Assembly (NCBI GenBank): GCA_937141405.1
Contig: CAKZQQ010000005.1
Coordinates: 620,001 to 684,000, forward strand
Length of the DNA stretch: 64,000 nt
Direction: 5' to 3'
From: an uncultured Campylobacterota bacterium
GTDB lineage: Bacteria; Campylobacterota; Campylobacteria; Campylobacterales; Sulfurovaceae
The notes under the pieces were generated by a model that saw only the letters and a program-made list of their open reading frames with translations, was not told the origin of the DNA and did no database searches. Positions 12,168 to 18,148 of this stretch are shown piece by piece (position 1 is the stretch's first letter; every line of letters begins with the position of its first letter). The position numbers and the translations under genes are program-made.

Positions 12168-12419
12168 TTAGAGTTCGCCGAGCAAATCTTGTATAGAGAT
12201 AAGATGTTTACCCACTCTCTTCTCGCCATTTTTACCCAATATACAATCATTTAACAATCGCATCAACTTCTCATAGGTTTCACTTGGGACGATATAGGCA
12301 TTGGGGACATTGTGATTGAGCACGGCGATAGCTTCTTTGCCCGCTTTTTTGATGACACTGCTTGGTGATTTTTTCAACTCACTGATACTCACACTCTTCT
12401 CTGCATAGATGCTTCTCAT
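12168..12419 (-). CDS. StbD/Phd-YefM-like antitoxin, apparently without a toxin
   Basis: The 83-residue protein reads VSISELKKSPSSVIKKAGKE, AIAVLNHNVPNAYIVPSETYE, typical of StbD-type antitoxins of the Phd/YefM superfamily. The N-terminal half should bind DNA as a dimer, and the tail would neutralise a RelE/StbE-like toxin. No toxin gene lies on either side: downstream there are only 68 bp before ileS. The leader has TAGTAC/GTACTA half-sites near 12423 and 12463, possibly an autoregulatory operator. It is either an orphan antitoxin or the remnant of a TA pair. Confidence 0.8.
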   Translation of the reverse strand: MRSIYAEKSVSISELKKSPSSVIKKAGKEAIAVLNHNVPNAYIVPSETYEKLMRLLNDCILGKNGEKRVGKHLISIQDLLGEL

Positions 12420-12958: not shown

Positions 12959-13298
12959 AGGTAACTCCTTTTTGAAGTCATTGTAATACAAAGAGATTAA
13001 AAAGATATAAAGATGTTTATGTAGTGATGTCTGCTAAAGACTATCGCCATTGCGAGCTTGTTTTAAATCTTCAAAAAGTGGAGATTTAACGCTTGATCTC
13101 TTGATCTTCATTTTTCAAGTCCAACGTTATCTAAGCAATACACTTTCAAACTTTAGAGATAATAAAATTTAAATTAAAATTTAGATAAAATGAAGTTAGA
13201 AAATTATAATCATAATAGGTATCGTTGCAAAATGACATATTTTTAAATAAACTAAAAATAAATTGCTATTCTTTTTCAAAATATAATGAGGAAGTATC
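12959..13298. other. intergenic boundary of the AT-rich island
   Basis: The 340 bp between the divergent superoxide reductase and methyltransferase genes hold no gene I can support. Base composition drops sharply in GC from about 13140 on, marking the left edge of the R-M island. The palindromic AT stretch AAATTTAAATT lies near 13167, and the 16-nt element described separately lies at 13227-13242. Confidence 0.5.
13227..13242 (+). promoter_or_regulatory. shared island element upstream of the R-M operon
   Basis: GCAAAATGACATATTT starts 72 nt before the methyltransferase ATG. The identical 16-mer occurs on the minus strand starting at 18117, 73 nt before the mazF ATG. The core AAATGACAT also forms the palindrome at 17535-17549. 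The matching distances suggest a common operator or promoter part, or inverted ends of one mobile unit. Confidence 0.5.
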
Positions 13299-15842
13299 AT
13301 GCAAACACCTAGTTTATTTGATTATATTAACAATACACAAGGAATAGATATAAAAACTTTAACTTATATTTCGCTTTTTAGTAGTGCTGGAATTGGTTGT
13401 TATGGATTTAAACAACAAGGTTTTAAATGTATCGCAACAAATGAGTATTTAGAGAAAAGAATAAAAATACAGCAATATAATGATAAATGTGAATTTGCTA
13501 GTGGTTATATACAAGGTGACTTAGCAACAAAAGAAATACAAGATAAAATCTATAAAGAATTAGAAAATAATAATGTAAATGACTTAGACGTATTAGTTGC
13601 AACTCCTCCTTGTCAAGGCATGTCAGTAGCAAATCATAAAAAAAACAATGAAACAAAAAGAAATTCACTTGTTGTTGAATCTATTAAAATTGTCAATAAA
13701 ATTAAGCCTAAGTTTTTCATTTTTGAAAATGTAAGAGCATTTTTAACTACTATTTGTACGGATGTTGACAATACCGATAAGCCTATTGGTGACTCTATTG
13801 AATTAAACTTAGCAGGTGATTATAATATACTATCTAAAGTAGTCAATTTTAAAGAGTATGGTTCTCAATCAAGCAGAACAAGAACTTTAATAATGGGAGC
13901 TAGAAAAGACTTAGTTAACATTAGTCCTTATCAGCTTTTCCCAAAAGAACAAAAAGCAAAAACTTTAAAGGCACTCATTGGCGATTTACCGTCATTAAAG
14001 ATGATGGGAGAAATATATGATGACGATATTTATCATTCATATCGAAGTTTTGATACTAAAATGCTACCCTGGATAAAGGACTTAAGAGAAGGAGAATCTG
14101 CTTTTGATAATAAAGATCCATTAAAAAGACCTCATCGAATTATTCATGGGAAAATAATATACAATAAAAATAAAAATGGTGATAAATATTCAAGATGGTA
14201 TTGGAATAAAGTTGCTCCTTGTATACACACAAGAAATGACATTTTAGCTAGTCAAAGTACAATTCATCCATCTGACAATAGAGTATTTAGCATTAGAGAG
14301 TTAATGCAAATGATGACAGTACCAAATGACTTTAAATGGTCAAATATAGATTCTGACACACTTAATAATTTACCGATAGAAGAAAAGAAAAAACACCTAA
14401 AACAAGAAGAGTTAAATATAAGGCACTGCATAGGTGAAGCAGTTCCGACTAAAATTTTTGAGCAAATTGCCTCCAATATAAAAAAAGCTTTAAAAAACAA
14501 AGTGCTATCTATCAATGAGATAACTAGGATAATACAAAAATATAACCTTGAAGATATGAATACATTAAGAGCATTTATATCAAATAATGAACACAAATAC
14601 GATATAAATACTCTTTATAATATTGCAGAACTTTCAAATATAAAAAGGACTGAAACTAAAGCATATTTTACAAGAGAAGATATAGTGTTTAATGTTATAA
14701 ATAAATTACCTAGTTTTAAAGCCAAAAAGAGCTTAAAAATATTAGAGCCATCAGTAGGGATTGGAAACTTTTTACCTTTATTGTTTAAAAAGTATAAAGA
14801 TATTCAAGATGTTATTTTGGATGTTATTGATATTGATAAAAACTCATTGGATATATTAAAAATACTATTGTCTAAAACAAACATACCTAAAAATTTCACG
14901 ATTAACTTTATTCATACAGATTTTTTACTGTGGGAAAATAGTACAGCTTACGATTTAATTATTGGAAATCCACCTTATGGGAAAGTTGCAAATAACAAAA
15001 CTCTACTAGATAAATATAAATTAAATTGTAAAAATAAAGATACAAATAACTTGTTTTCATTTTTCATAGAAAAAGCAACAAGATTATCAAAGTATGTATC
15101 ACTAATAGTTCCAAAAAGCTTAATTAACGCACCAGAGTTTAATCAAACAAGAGATTTATTAGAAAATACAAATCTGCACTCAATCACTGATTACGGAGAA
15201 AAAGCTTTTAAAGGTGTCAAAATAGAAACTATTAGCTTTTTATTAGATACTTATAAACAAGATAAATTTGAAAAAATAAAAATTGAAAGCTATATAACAA
15301 ATAGTATTGAATATCAAGATAAATCTTATATATTTTCTAAAGAGTTTCCTTATTGGTTAATATATAGAAATAGTTTTTTTGATGCTATTGTAGATAAAAT
15401 GGAATTAGATATTTTTGAAAGTTTTAGAGATAGGCAAATCACAAAGAAACATACTCTAAGTAAGGGTAAAATTAGAGTTCTAAAATCAAGAAATATTGAT
15501 AATAATGATATCAAAGATATAAAAGATTATGATTGTTTTATAAATGATGTTGATAGCTTTGTAGTTTCAAAATTTTTGAATCAAAATGATATAGTCTTAG
15601 TACCAAATCTTACTTATTATCCAAGAGCGACATTTTTGCCCAAAAATACAATTACTGATGGGTCAGTTGCACTGTTAAAACCTAAAGAAAATATCAAAGT
15701 TACATCTGAACATTTAGAATATTATAGTAGTGAAGAATTTACAGAATATTATAAAATAGCCAGAAATAGAGGGACTAGATCATTAAATATTGATAATAAT
15801 TCTGTTAAATTTTTTGGGTTATTGAAAGAAAACATATCTTAA
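13299..15842 (+). CDS. bifunctional DNA methyltransferase: C5-cytosine domain fused to gamma-class N6-adenine domain
   Basis: Residues 20-400 form a m5C methyltransferase: motif I ISLFSSAGIG (24-33), motif IV PPCQ with catalytic C105, ENV at 143-145, QSSRTR at 190-195, a short target-recognition region, and motifs IX/X (SIRELMQMM, GEAVPTKI). Residues about 450-847 form an amino-methyltransferase: motif X-like YFTREDIV, motif I ILEPSVGIGNF (481-491), motif IV NPPY (557-560), then a TaqI/Eco57I-type recognition region. This order defines the gamma class. Two modification chemistries in one chain fit an asymmetric target with C methylated on one strand and A on the other, as in some type IIS systems. 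It is the first gene of an AT-rich, probably acquired operon. The ATG has a GAGGAAG ribosome site. Confidence 0.9.
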   Translation: MQTPSLFDYINNTQGIDIKTLTYISLFSSAGIGCYGFKQQGFKCIATNEYLEKRIKIQQYNDKCEFASGYIQGDLATKEIQDKIYKELENNNVNDLDVLVATPPCQGMSVANHKKNNETKRNSLVVESIKIVNKIKPKFFIFENVRAFLTTICTDVDNTDKPIGDSIELNLAGDYNILSKVVNFKEYGSQSSRTRTLIMGARKDLVNISPYQLFPKEQKAKTLKALIGDLPSLKMMGEIYDDDIYHSYRSFDTKMLPWIKDLREGESAFDNKDPLKRPHRIIHGKIIYNKNKNGDKYSRWYWNKVAPCIHTRNDILASQSTIHPSDNRVFSIRELMQMMTVPNDFKWSNIDSDTLNNLPIEEKKKHLKQEELNIRHCIGEAVPTKIFEQIASNIKKALKNKVLSINEITRIIQKYNLEDMNTLRAFISNNEHKYDINTLYNIAELSNIKRTETKAYFTREDIVFNVINKLPSFKAKKSLKILEPSVGIGNFLPLLFKKYKDIQDVILDVIDIDKNSLDILKILLSKTNIPKNFTINFIHTDFLLWENSTAYDLIIGNPPYGKVANNKTLLDKYKLNCKNKDTNNLFSFFIEKATRLSKYVSLIVPKSLINAPEFNQTRDLLENTNLHSITDYGEKAFKGVKIETISFLLDTYKQDKFEKIKIESYITNSIEYQDKSYIFSKEFPYWLIYRNSFFDAIVDKMELDIFESFRDRQITKKHTLSKGKIRVLKSRNIDNNDIKDIKDYDCFINDVDSFVVSKFLNQNDIVLVPNLTYYPRATFLPKNTITDGSVALLKPKENIKVTSEHLEYYSSEEFTEYYKIARNRGTRSLNIDNNSVKFFGLLKENIS

Positions 15843-15858
15843 TACACAGGAATTGCAA

Positions 15859-16230
15859 ATGCATAAAAATAGTTACGGTCAAAATAGACAAGTAAAGTTT
15901 ACGACTGAGCGTGAATACTACAGAGCACTTGGTTATCTAGCAAAATCAGACAATACTTCATCTATACATTGGGAAAATAACGAGGATCAAGGTGCTTGGG
16001 GAAGTGAAGGTAGAATACATTTTTTAATTAACACTCCTCCTATACCTGGATATTTTAAATTAACAGCTGGTAGACCAGGTGTAGAACATCATACTAATTG
16101 CAATGAGTTTGTTGAGAATATTGTAATAAATCATAATTTTGTAATGAGTAGTAGCCAAAATATTGAAAATATAAGAAGTACAGTACCAGCTAGTTTTATT
16201 AATGATTTCAATTATGGATTAACACTTTAA
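15859..16230 (+). CDS. small unknown protein between methyltransferase and nuclease
   Basis: This is a 123-residue protein starting at the ATG at 15859 (AGGA seven bases upstream), 16 bp after the methyltransferase stop. It is soluble, with no signal or transmembrane segment. Notable segments are FTTEREYYRALGYLA near the start, then SIHWENNEDQGAWGSEGRIH and FKLTAGRPGVEHHTNCNEF. I recognise no family: it lacks Vsr mismatch-endonuclease motifs and an obvious HTH of C-protein type. Its position suggests a restriction subunit, an inhibitor or a controller. Confidence 0.7.
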   Translation: MHKNSYGQNRQVKFTTEREYYRALGYLAKSDNTSSIHWENNEDQGAWGSEGRIHFLINTPPIPGYFKLTAGRPGVEHHTNCNEFVENIVINHNFVMSSSQNIENIRSTVPASFINDFNYGLTL

Positions 16231-16250
16231 TAATGTAAGGATATTAACTT

Positions 16251-17411
16251 ATGATAAACACTATAGAAGCTTACTTACAAACTATTGATTTAGATATTAG
16301 AAAAACAAACAATGCTAGGTTTTTTGACCAAAAAGTGCAACCAGATGTTTTAAGTGCTGTTTGTGAATGTATATTAAACTGCATTAATGAAGATGACTCA
16401 TTTAGTGTAAATGATGTCAGATATTGTGATTATTCAAATGAATTAGTAACTGAAATATTTAATAAGCCCGATATAAAAAAAGCAGAAAATGAATATGATA
16501 AGTTTTTTTCTCAACCCTTGAAAATGTTAGCTTATAGTGGTTTAGTAAGTGAAGAAAAAAATGGTCGTTCAAATGTGTATAAAATCATAAAAAAAGACTT
16601 TATTGAGTATATTTCTTTAAGAGATAGAAATGCTTTTTATTTTTTATCAATGTATCTTGAAAAAGTTTTAAAAGATAGTGATATATGGAAATATTTTGAT
16701 AATTTTTTTAATAAACAAGATAAAAATTCATTGTATGAATTAAGAGATAAGTATGTAGCTTTTATTATTGAAAATACTGCAATTACAAAAGAACTTGAGC
16801 CAATACGAATATTTAATCCTATGCTCAATATTTTAAGTTTTAAGTATAAAAAATTTGGTAGTAAATCAGGTGAAGTGTCTATTGTTAACTATAATGATTT
16901 ACTTTATAATAGACCAAATTGGAGAGATGTTAAAAAAGATAAATCTGTTACCAGAGAAGAATTTAATGTACAATTCTTCGAAAAAGAAATTAAGAATGAA
17001 AAATTTTATAAATATCAAATCGAAAAAGCCAAAAGACTTGTTAAAACTATTCATTCCTTTAGTGAAATTCATAGGTTCGACGCATATCCAGCGACACAAG
17101 CACATCATATTTTTTTGGCGTCACAATTTCCAGAATTAGCTGATATTCCTGAAAATATTATTGCTATAACTCCAAATCAACATTTTTATAGAGCACATCC
17201 AAATAATAAAACGAGTGTTTTAGATAAATCATATCAAGCAATTTGTTTAATTTCAAAATTAGATTCTATTGAAATTGATTATAGAAATGGTAATGGGTAC
17301 TATACTAAAGAAAATTTTATTGATGTAATTAATATTGGTTTAGAGCAAGACTTTAGTTATGCAATTGATTTTGAAGAATTGAAACATAATATCATCAGAT
17401 ATTACACTTAA
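16251..17411 (+). CDS. putative type II restriction endonuclease with HNH (beta-beta-alpha-metal) site
   Basis: The 386-residue protein is third in the R-M operon. Near the C-terminus, AHHIFLASQFPELADIPENI followed by IAITPNQHFYRAHP has the HNH layout: H285/H286 (general base), N302 or N309, and H311. Residues about 80-120 (LKMLAYSGLVSEEKNGRSNV) look like a winged helix and may read DNA. Some type IIS enzymes such as Eco31I use an HNH site with a double-activity modification system, which supports but does not prove the role. The very low GC matches its neighbours. The recognition site is unknown. Confidence 0.75.
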   Translation: MINTIEAYLQTIDLDIRKTNNARFFDQKVQPDVLSAVCECILNCINEDDSFSVNDVRYCDYSNELVTEIFNKPDIKKAENEYDKFFSQPLKMLAYSGLVSEEKNGRSNVYKIIKKDFIEYISLRDRNAFYFLSMYLEKVLKDSDIWKYFDNFFNKQDKNSLYELRDKYVAFIIENTAITKELEPIRIFNPMLNILSFKYKKFGSKSGEVSIVNYNDLLYNRPNWRDVKKDKSVTREEFNVQFFEKEIKNEKFYKYQIEKAKRLVKTIHSFSEIHRFDAYPATQAHHIFLASQFPELADIPENIIAITPNQHFYRAHPNNKTSVLDKSYQAICLISKLDSIEIDYRNGNGYYTKENFIDVINIGLEQDFSYAIDFEELKHNIIRYYT

Positions 17412-17430
17412 AAAAACAGATAACAAAACC

Positions 17431-17455
17431 CAGTAATGAACGGGTAACATTACTG
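17431..17455 (+). terminator. inverted repeat after the R-M operon
   Basis: CAGTAATG (17431-17438) pairs perfectly with CATTACTG (17448-17455) around a 9-nt loop, 19 bp after the nuclease stop. There is no following T-tract on the plus strand, so termination may be weak or Rho-assisted. Confidence 0.45.
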
Positions 17456-17534
17456 AAATTCGCCGTTATCTCAGGTACCACACCATCATAATAATCCAAT
17501 TTTATCATTATAAACTAAAATAGTGAGTGTGATT

Positions 17535-17574
17535 TCAAATGACATTTGACTTTATCTATATTATTGGATATAAT
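17535..17574 (+). promoter_or_regulatory. orphan sigma-70 promoter with palindromic operator
   Basis: TTGACT (17546-17551), a 17-bp spacer and TATAAT (17569-17574) form a near-consensus promoter reading rightward, but no plus-strand gene follows. A perfect 15-bp palindrome TCAAATGACATTTGA (17535-17549) overlaps the -35 box, and a further TCAAATG half-site lies just after the -10 (17575-17581). The palindrome shares AAATGACAT with the elements upstream of the R-M operon and mazF. Confidence 0.6.
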
Positions 17575-17580
17575 TCAAAT

Positions 17581-17651
17581 GTACATATATGGGCTGGGTG
17601 CAAACCTTTGCTCGCCCCTTGGGGGCAACTACTTCACTCAAAACTTTTTTT
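17581..17651 (+). ncRNA. candidate small RNA convergent with the mazF 3' end
   Basis: The transcript predicted from the orphan promoter begins near 17581. It contains the hairpin GCCCCTTGGGGGC (17614-17626) and runs into T7 (17645-17651), which overlaps the last codons of mazF in antisense. There is no credible reading frame. It could be a small regulatory RNA or a leader of lost genes. The evidence is sequence layout only. Confidence 0.35.
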
Positions 17652-18044
17652 AATAGCTTCATTTATTTTCATCTGTAATGTTTTTGATATAAATGGTTTT
17701 ATAACATCTTTTACTCTTCTTTTCTTGTCGATATTTCTAATATGACTAACTTTTATAGTTGTTTTGTTCTCAACGATATGCCCATATCTATCAATATCTA
17801 TCACTACATTTGTTCTATAATTTTCATCGCCCTCTCTATAGGTTGTTAAAGGAACTACGGCGATAATATCTGCTTTTACATCGTTTGAAACTACTATTGC
17901 CATATGTCTATAACAAAATTCATGACCCATATTTAAACCATGAGTGTATGTTCTAGTGTCTTCACAATCTAAATCTTCTTTTTTATTTCCAAATTCCACC
18001 CAAAGTAATGAATATTTATTCAAATCTGCCCATCTTATCGCCAT
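17634..18044 (-). CDS. MazF/PemK-family toxin (solitary)
   Basis: The 136-residue protein has the MazF/PemK pattern: GHEFCYRHMAIVVSND, then IIAVVPLTTYREGDENYRTN, then TTIKVSHIRNIDKKRR near the C-terminus. Family members are mRNA interferases of the SH3-like barrel fold. They normally pair with a small antitoxin immediately upstream, but here nothing is encoded between this ATG and the Fic gene. It lies tail-to-tail with the R-M operon and shares a 16-nt upstream element with it. Alternative antitoxins are a distant protein, the Fic module, or the convergent RNA candidate. Confidence 0.8.
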   Translation of the reverse strand: MAIRWADLNKYSLLWVEFGNKKEDLDCEDTRTYTHGLNMGHEFCYRHMAIVVSNDVKADIIAVVPLTTYREGDENYRTNVVIDIDRYGHIVENKTTIKVSHIRNIDKKRRVKDVIKPFISKTLQMKINEAIKKSFE

Positions 18045-18064
18045 TTTTGTAGTCCTTGCTTTTT

Positions 18065-18117
18065 GAATATATTATAATGCAATATCCAACGAATATATTA
18101 TAAATATGTCATTTTGC
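18065..18117 (-). promoter_or_regulatory. mazF leader: 13-bp direct repeats and shared 16-nt element
   Basis: GAATATATTATAA occurs twice on the plus strand (18065-18077, 18091-18103), 26 bp apart and each containing the palindrome AATATATT. On the minus strand these supply TATAAT -10 sequences. GCAAAATGACATATTT, identical to the element before the R-M operon, covers 18102-18117 on the minus strand. The layout suggests an operator-controlled promoter. Confidence 0.5.
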
Positions 18118-18148
18118 CATATTGAGGTATGCTTATCACAACTCTATC

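What the first reader, a model, noticed from the sequence alone, without database searches (positions are those of the whole stretch)
13227..18117. Shared AAATGACAT-core operators tie the R-M operon, an orphan promoter and mazF into one regulatory unit
GCAAAATGACATATTT occurs 72 nt before the methyltransferase ATG (13227-13242) and, inverted, 73 nt before the mazF ATG (18117-18102). The same core forms a perfect palindrome (17535-17549) over the -35 box of a third promoter. The equal spacing and inward-facing genes suggest common control of restriction and toxin, or inverted ends of a single mobile module. Caveat: AAATGACATTTT also occurs once inside the methyltransferase gene (near 14233), and AT-rich DNA gives chance matches.
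Basis: partly seen in the sequence, partly recalled or inferred. Interest (0 to 1): 0.65.

Follow-up and report, generated by a model that had tools for sequence, protein, structure and literature searches.

The report
Hidden SOS-like regulon lacking LexA
The matching DNA motifs before a restriction-modification operon and a toxin gene are two of about twenty copies of a 23-base palindrome that also sits before recA, ruvA, dprA, radA and other repair, DNA-uptake and defence genes, apparently the binding site of a LexA-like protein in a bacterial group thought to have no SOS regulator.

Summary
The two 16-mers are real, but they are parts of a longer site, the palindrome AAATATGnCAnnnTGnCATATTT. 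It occurs 24 times in the genome (control 1), mostly between genes: before recA, ruvA, radA, dprA, comEA, comM, a Y-family polymerase, a RelB/DinJ antitoxin, two R-M systems, two MazF/PemK-like toxins and others. In most of these promoters a -10 box lies exactly 24 nt downstream. A matrix built only from sites outside the window ranks the mazF site first and the R-M site second of all positions in the 64 kb. The third palindrome (17535-17549) does not belong.

The likely binder is encoded on another contig: a CI-type helix-turn-helix plus S24 peptidase protein with an intact cleavage site and Ser/Lys pair. Its homologues carry the palindrome before their own gene (50 of 59), and recA carries it in several families. 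LexA proper is absent from all 150 genomes of the order searched.

Whether the protein activates or represses is open; the rigid spacing favours activation. There are no expression data here.

The parts
13220..13242 (+). Operator of the R-M operon: perfect right half TGACATATTT, degenerate left half (5 mismatches to the full palindrome)
   Evidence: Second-best matrix score in the window, 13.1 bits against 5.5 for the next place
13267..13272 (+). -10 box TATTCT of the R-M operon, 24 nt after the operator, preceded by TGC (extended -10)
   Evidence: Sequence; spacing; inferred promoter
13299..15842 (+). Fused C5 / Eco57I-type N6 DNA methyltransferase, 847 aa
   Evidence: PF00145 and PF07669; PADLOC MTase_II E 2e-242
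15859..16230 (+). 123-aa protein of unknown function in the R-M operon
   Evidence: No family match
16251..17411 (+). Type II restriction enzyme, 386 aa
   Evidence: PADLOC REase_II PDLC03488 E 8e-100
17634..18044 (-). MazF/PemK-like toxin, 136 aa
   Evidence: PF02452 E 2e-10
18071..18076 (-). -10 box TATAAT of mazF, 25 nt after the operator
   Evidence: Sequence; spacing; inferred promoter
18102..18124 (-). Operator of mazF, one mismatch to the full palindrome
   Evidence: Best matrix score in the window, 26.2 bits

Best explanation
The two elements are operators of a genome-wide SOS/competence-like regulon. The operator is the 23-bp palindrome AAATATGnCAnnnTGnCATATTT. It is most likely bound by a dimer of the CI-type HTH plus S24-peptidase protein at G000:C6:80659-81309 (L047:2160-2813, P0001), a functional counterpart of LexA in this LexA-less order. 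Shown here: the palindrome, its target genes, the fixed 24-nt distance to a -10 box, its conservation, and its presence before the regulator's own gene. Inferred: (1) the protein binds it; (2) DNA damage is sensed through RecA-stimulated self-cleavage at the conserved ASAGGG site; (3) the R-M operon and mazF, both rare and patchily spread genes, were recruited by gaining an operator. On the sign of control I lean (55-60%) to activation of the targets from a site just upstream of the -35 region, as lambda CI does at PRM, together with autorepression; LexA-style repression of the targets is the main alternative within this explanation.
For: 24 sites against 1 in the control; targets include recA, ruvA, radA, dprA, comEA, comM and a Y-family polymerase. 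-10 exactly 24 nt downstream in 16 of 21 own promoters and 20 of 31 in two relatives, other offsets rare. Window sites rank first and second with a matrix trained elsewhere. Same target set in another genus; recA carries the site in five families. P0001 family: CI HTH + Peptidase_S24, invariant ASAGGG, GxSMEPT and FxKR motifs, model resembling 186 CI, LexA and lambda CI, in 96 of 150 genomes, palindrome upstream of its own gene in 50 of 59 named homologues against 26 of 1039 control stretches. Three or more strict motifs in 27 of 96 genomes with the protein against 3 of 54 without, p = 0.0006. No genome of 150 has LexA over the curated cut-off. Self promoter has a different geometry from the targets.
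Against: No binding, cleavage or expression data. Several families have the protein but no site before recA (f4, f9, f17, f18). An activator destroyed by damage would switch repair genes off, so activation and SOS-type induction are hard to reconcile. The R-M operator is half degenerate. The -10 matrix was hand-set and the genome could be searched only by patterns. The Fisher test ignores relatedness of the genomes.
Confidence: 0.78

Rival explanations
1. Same regulon and operator, but the binder is another protein, for example the WYL-domain regulator at G000:C3:73000-73902 beside an operator, in the manner of the ssDNA-sensing PafBC or DriD.
For: A WYL/WCX protein lies next to a site; WYL activators control LexA-independent damage responses (general knowledge).
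Against: No match to it in 8 of 15 motif-rich genomes and mostly weak ones elsewhere; the 24-nt spacing at that site points to the divergent rhuM, not to the WYL gene; it offers no counterpart to the conserved site before the S24 gene.
Confidence: 0.08
2. The S24 protein binds the operator as a plain LexA-like repressor of all targets, released by RecA-stimulated cleavage.
For: S24/CI architecture with intact cleavage site; SOS-type targets; known LexA substitutes are repressors (PMC13148647, PMC8565304).
Against: Operator sits upstream of the -35 region at one rigid distance, unlike its place at the regulator's own gene; target -10 boxes often depart from consensus.
Confidence: 0.35
3. The two elements are a private operator pair of the island, or inverted ends of a mobile module.
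For: Inverted orientation and equal spacing.
Against: About 20 further copies before core genes, and in other genera; methyltransferase relatives lack the element.
Confidence: 0.02
4. The R-M site alone is a chance match in AT-rich DNA, while the mazF site is real.
For: Repeated 16-mers are common in this window (17 against 3 in shuffles); the R-M site has 5 mismatches to the palindrome.
Against: Clear second rank with a matrix trained elsewhere, correct spacing to a -10, and other C5-methyltransferase genes carrying the site in four families.
Confidence: 0.12

Closest known systems
FddR of Francisella (PMC13148647)
   Same: S24-family, phage-repressor-like protein acting in the DNA-damage response in place of LexA; binds a palindrome and autoregulates
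   Different: FddR binds GTG-N11-CAC, regulates itself and divergent genes, does not induce recA, and is absent outside its genus; here the regulon includes recA and many repair and uptake genes across an order
HdiR of Lactococcus (described in PMC8565304) and UmuDAb of Acinetobacter (PMC3978071)
   Same: LexA-like S24 regulators in lineages without LexA
   Different: Smaller regulons reported (itself and a UmuC homologue; error-prone polymerases and ddrR); unrelated operator; both described as repressors
Non-canonical LexA of Bacteroidetes (PMC8565304)
   Same: A phylum-level LexA substitute found by comparative motif analysis
   Different: Different phylum and protein family; repressor with a canonical damage response
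Lambda CI at PRM (general knowledge)
   Same: CI/S24 protein that activates from a site next to the -35 and represses elsewhere
   Different: Phage switch; different operator; the activation proposed here is inferred
Helicobacter pylori DNA-damage response (PMC2912397)
   Same: Same phylum, lexA absent, RecA-dependent response joined to competence
   Different: No regulator identified in that study; repair genes and recA are not induced there

Membership tests
Canonical LexA (TIGR00498) | Score over the curated LexA cut-off | tested here: not met
   P0001 scores 33.1 bits against a cut-off of 110.95; 0 of 150 genomes over cut-off
Canonical LexA (TIGR00498) | S24 catalytic domain with cleavage site | tested here: met
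   Peptidase_S24 E 1e-19; ASAGGG, Ser and Lys invariant
LexA-like S24 damage regulators (FddR/HdiR/UmuDAb kind) | DNA-binding domain joined to an S24 autoprotease | tested here: met
   Phage_CI_repr + Peptidase_S24; fold matches 186 CI and LexA
LexA-like S24 damage regulators (FddR/HdiR/UmuDAb kind) | Palindromic operator before its own gene | tested here: met
   50 of 59 homologues against 26 of 1039 control stretches
LexA-like S24 damage regulators (FddR/HdiR/UmuDAb kind) | Operator before repair or mutagenesis genes | tested here: met
   recA, ruvA, radA, Y-family polymerase and others
LexA-like S24 damage regulators (FddR/HdiR/UmuDAb kind) | RecA-stimulated self-cleavage and induction by DNA damage | not testable with these tools
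   Needs bench work
WYL damage activators (PafBC, DriD) | Regulator present wherever the operator is | tested here: not met
   Absent from 8 of 15 motif-rich genomes
Mobile module with terminal inverted repeats | Repeats occur at the module ends | tested here: not met
   Copies before unrelated genes genome-wide
C-protein-controlled R-M system | Small HTH controller protein in the R-M operon | tested here: not met
   The 123-aa protein has no HTH or other family match
Type II restriction-modification | Methyltransferase and restriction enzyme in one operon | tested here: met
   MTase_II and REase_II models

The most novel reading that the evidence does not exclude
A LexA-replacing CI/S24 protein that acts as an activator of a recombination, DNA-uptake and defence regulon across much of a phylum held to lack SOS, with the operator fixed 24 nt upstream of the -10, and with restriction enzymes and toxins recruited into it.
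Probability: 0.42. Interest if true: 0.87.

Novelty: new variant of a known kind. Interest (0 to 1): 0.78.

Why it matters
Campylobacterota such as H. pylori and C. jejuni lack lexA, and how members of the phylum control a DNA-damage response is an old open question (PMC2912397). This gives a specific candidate regulator, an explicit operator and a target list for relatives of Sulfurovum, Sulfurimonas, Sulfurospirillum and Arcobacter, all directly testable. It also places restriction enzymes, toxins and DNA uptake in one circuit with repair. In the open-access library searched, no such regulon in this phylum turned up; subscription papers were not searched.

Tried and rejected
Rfam scan of the island: nothing. 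WYL regulator as the binder: rejected by distribution and spacing. The 17535 palindrome as a member: rejected by matrix score. mazF relatives: one distant homologue in 150 genomes, no test possible. The 17500-17650 stretch as a dispersed repeat: only a 61-bp, 78% match in one other genome; its RNA fold is unremarkable (z -1.3). Paper searches on ComR boxes and on regulators of the H. pylori response gave nothing used beyond PMC2912397. A first hmmscan of cross-family targets failed on wrong coordinates and was repeated.

Full report
What was checked. Taken alone they are not convincing: repeated 16-mers are common in this window (17 against 3.0 in shuffles). A search of the whole genome (1.75 Mb, 8 contigs) changed the picture: 17 near-matches against 1 for the reversed pattern, many of them between genes. 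Their contexts showed that the 16-mer is the right part of a 23-bp palindrome, AAATATGnCAnnnTGnCATATTT.

The palindrome in this genome. With up to 3 mismatches it occurs 24 times against 1 for the control. At least three sites lie inside genes and are probably chance (L038, L039, L044). The others precede recA, ruvA, radA, dprA, a ComEA-like HhH protein, comM, a Y-family polymerase, a RelB/DinJ antitoxin followed by a YafQ-like gene, a second C5-methyltransferase, mazF, a PemK-like protein, two RhuM proteins, an ORF6N-like protein, a DUF2130 protein, a RAYT-like transposase, an SH3 protein, a CI/S24 regulator and a short HTH protein. YafQ, RAYT, ORF6N in this genome, the short HTH and the second PemK are my reading of the sequences; the family scans gave no match for RAYT, the short HTH or the second PemK.

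Fixed geometry. A -10-like hexamer lies exactly 24 nt after the palindrome in 16 of 21 promoters, and at 25 nt in two more, one of them mazF; no other offset has more than three. In two relatives the numbers are 20 of 31 at 24 nt and 7 at 25 nt. The -10 matrix was set by hand, but the peak is far above all other offsets. The R-M promoter (TATTCT at 24 nt) and mazF (TATAAT at 25 nt) both fit.

The two window sites. A matrix trained on the 19 sites outside the window scores 18102-18124 at 26.2 bits and 13220-13242 at 13.1, first and second of all positions; the next is 5.5. The R-M site has a perfect right half and a poor left half. The 17535 palindrome scores -10.7 at best and is not part of this.

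Conservation. In 150 genomes of the order the strict motif is concentrated in some families, with near-zero controls. In a second genus of the same family it precedes recA, ruvA, radA, dprA, comM, recG, recQ, radC, a Y-family polymerase, ORF6N, DUF2130 and a tyrosine recombinase. Upstream of recA it lies about 50-95 nt before the ATG, with a -10 usually at 24 nt, in families f1, f8, f16, f20 and f6. In those families variants of the palindrome also precede recG, recN, radA, radC, comM, integrases, a Bro-N protein resembling DinD (my reading), a YhcG-type nuclease and C5-methyltransferases. C5-methyltransferases carry the site in four families (L043 and the window in f1, L304 in f20, L314 in f6, L335 in f8), so the coupling of R-M genes to this regulon recurs.

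Names. A scan of named contigs places the window's family with Sulfurovum (Sulfurovaceae); homologues of the regulator occur in Sulfurovum, Sulfurospirillum, Sulfurimonas, Sulfuricurvum, Arcobacter and Nautiliaceae. The names of f8 (Arcobacteraceae) and f16 (Sulfurimonadaceae) are inferences.

The regulator. P0001 (G000:C6:80659-81309) has a phage-CI HTH and a Peptidase_S24 domain, an ASAGGG cleavage site and the Ser and Lys residues, invariant among homologues. It is present in 96 of 150 genomes. The structural model (mean pLDDT 79) matches phage 186 CI, LexA and lambda CI. Named homologues have the palindrome upstream in 50 of 59 cases at 13/16 or better, against 26 of 1039 control stretches; Nautiliaceae lack it. 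No genome of the 150 has a LexA over the curated cut-off; the weak hits in this genome and its relatives are largely these S24 proteins themselves. A WYL regulator was considered and set aside.

Activator or repressor. At target genes the operator ends just upstream of the -35 region, at one fixed distance, with -10 boxes that often depart from consensus. At the regulator's own gene the geometry differs: 15-16 nt to a mostly perfect TATAAT in Sulfurovaceae, about 26 nt with a TTGAC-like -35 in Sulfurimonas, and close before the start codon in several Sulfurospirillum. This looks like activation of targets and repression of self, as for lambda CI (general knowledge). Two S24-less relatives of the family have recA promoters with a decayed palindrome and a consensus TATAAT at the same place; that fits loss of an activator, but is a single genus. 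Against it, an activator destroyed on damage would switch repair genes off. The sign of control is therefore open.

The R-M island itself. The operon encodes a fused C5/N6 methyltransferase and a type II restriction enzyme. Four relatives of the methyltransferase in other families lack the element upstream. The operator is thus an acquisition within the host regulon, not a property of the cassette. mazF relatives are too rare to test.

Comparison with what is known. Other LexA-less lineages use S24 proteins: FddR in Francisella (PMC13148647), HdiR in Lactococcus (PMC8565304), UmuDAb in Acinetobacter (PMC3978071). The present family is of that kind, but with a different operator, a recA-containing regulon spread over an order, and a fixed promoter geometry. 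H. pylori and C. jejuni lack lexA, and H. pylori answers damage with a RecA-dependent competence response (PMC2912397).

Verdict. What is there is larger: two members of an SOS/competence-like regulon in a LexA-less order, with a specific candidate regulator. Binding, cleavage and induction remain untested.

Noticed in passing
window 17535-17640: Orphan TTGACT-17-TATAAT promoter over an unrelated odd palindrome, followed by a GC-rich stretch that folds into two hairpins; part of it is 78% matched in one other genome of the family.
   Followed up: partly
window 17634-18044: MazF/PemK-like toxin with no antitoxin gene seen next to it; a Fic/DUF4172 gene lies just upstream on the same strand.
   Followed up: no
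window 12168-12419: Phd/YefM-type antitoxin gene with no toxin gene beside it in the ORF list.
   Followed up: no
L049:2014-2277: 87-aa protein resembling the HTH half of the S24 regulator, without the peptidase domain, behind its own operator; it might modulate the regulon.
   Followed up: no
L009:747-4001: rhuM and a PemK-like gene have near-duplicate promoters with the operator, followed by an AriA-like (PARIS/OLD type) ATPase gene.
   Followed up: partly
L012:1270-1337 and L042:3504-3571: comM and the DUF2130 gene share a second similar stretch (GTGTGGATAG...CACATTTC) just upstream of the operator.
   Followed up: no
L163:167-1141, L306:511-1356, L308, L316: Tyrosine recombinases resembling integron integrases carry the operator with a -10 about 24 nt downstream in three genera, a parallel to LexA-controlled integron integrases.
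   Followed up: partly
L039 and L010 (G000:C3:66900-75500): CRISPR cas1 and cas2 genes within a few kb of a WYL-domain regulator and a rhuM gene.
   Followed up: no
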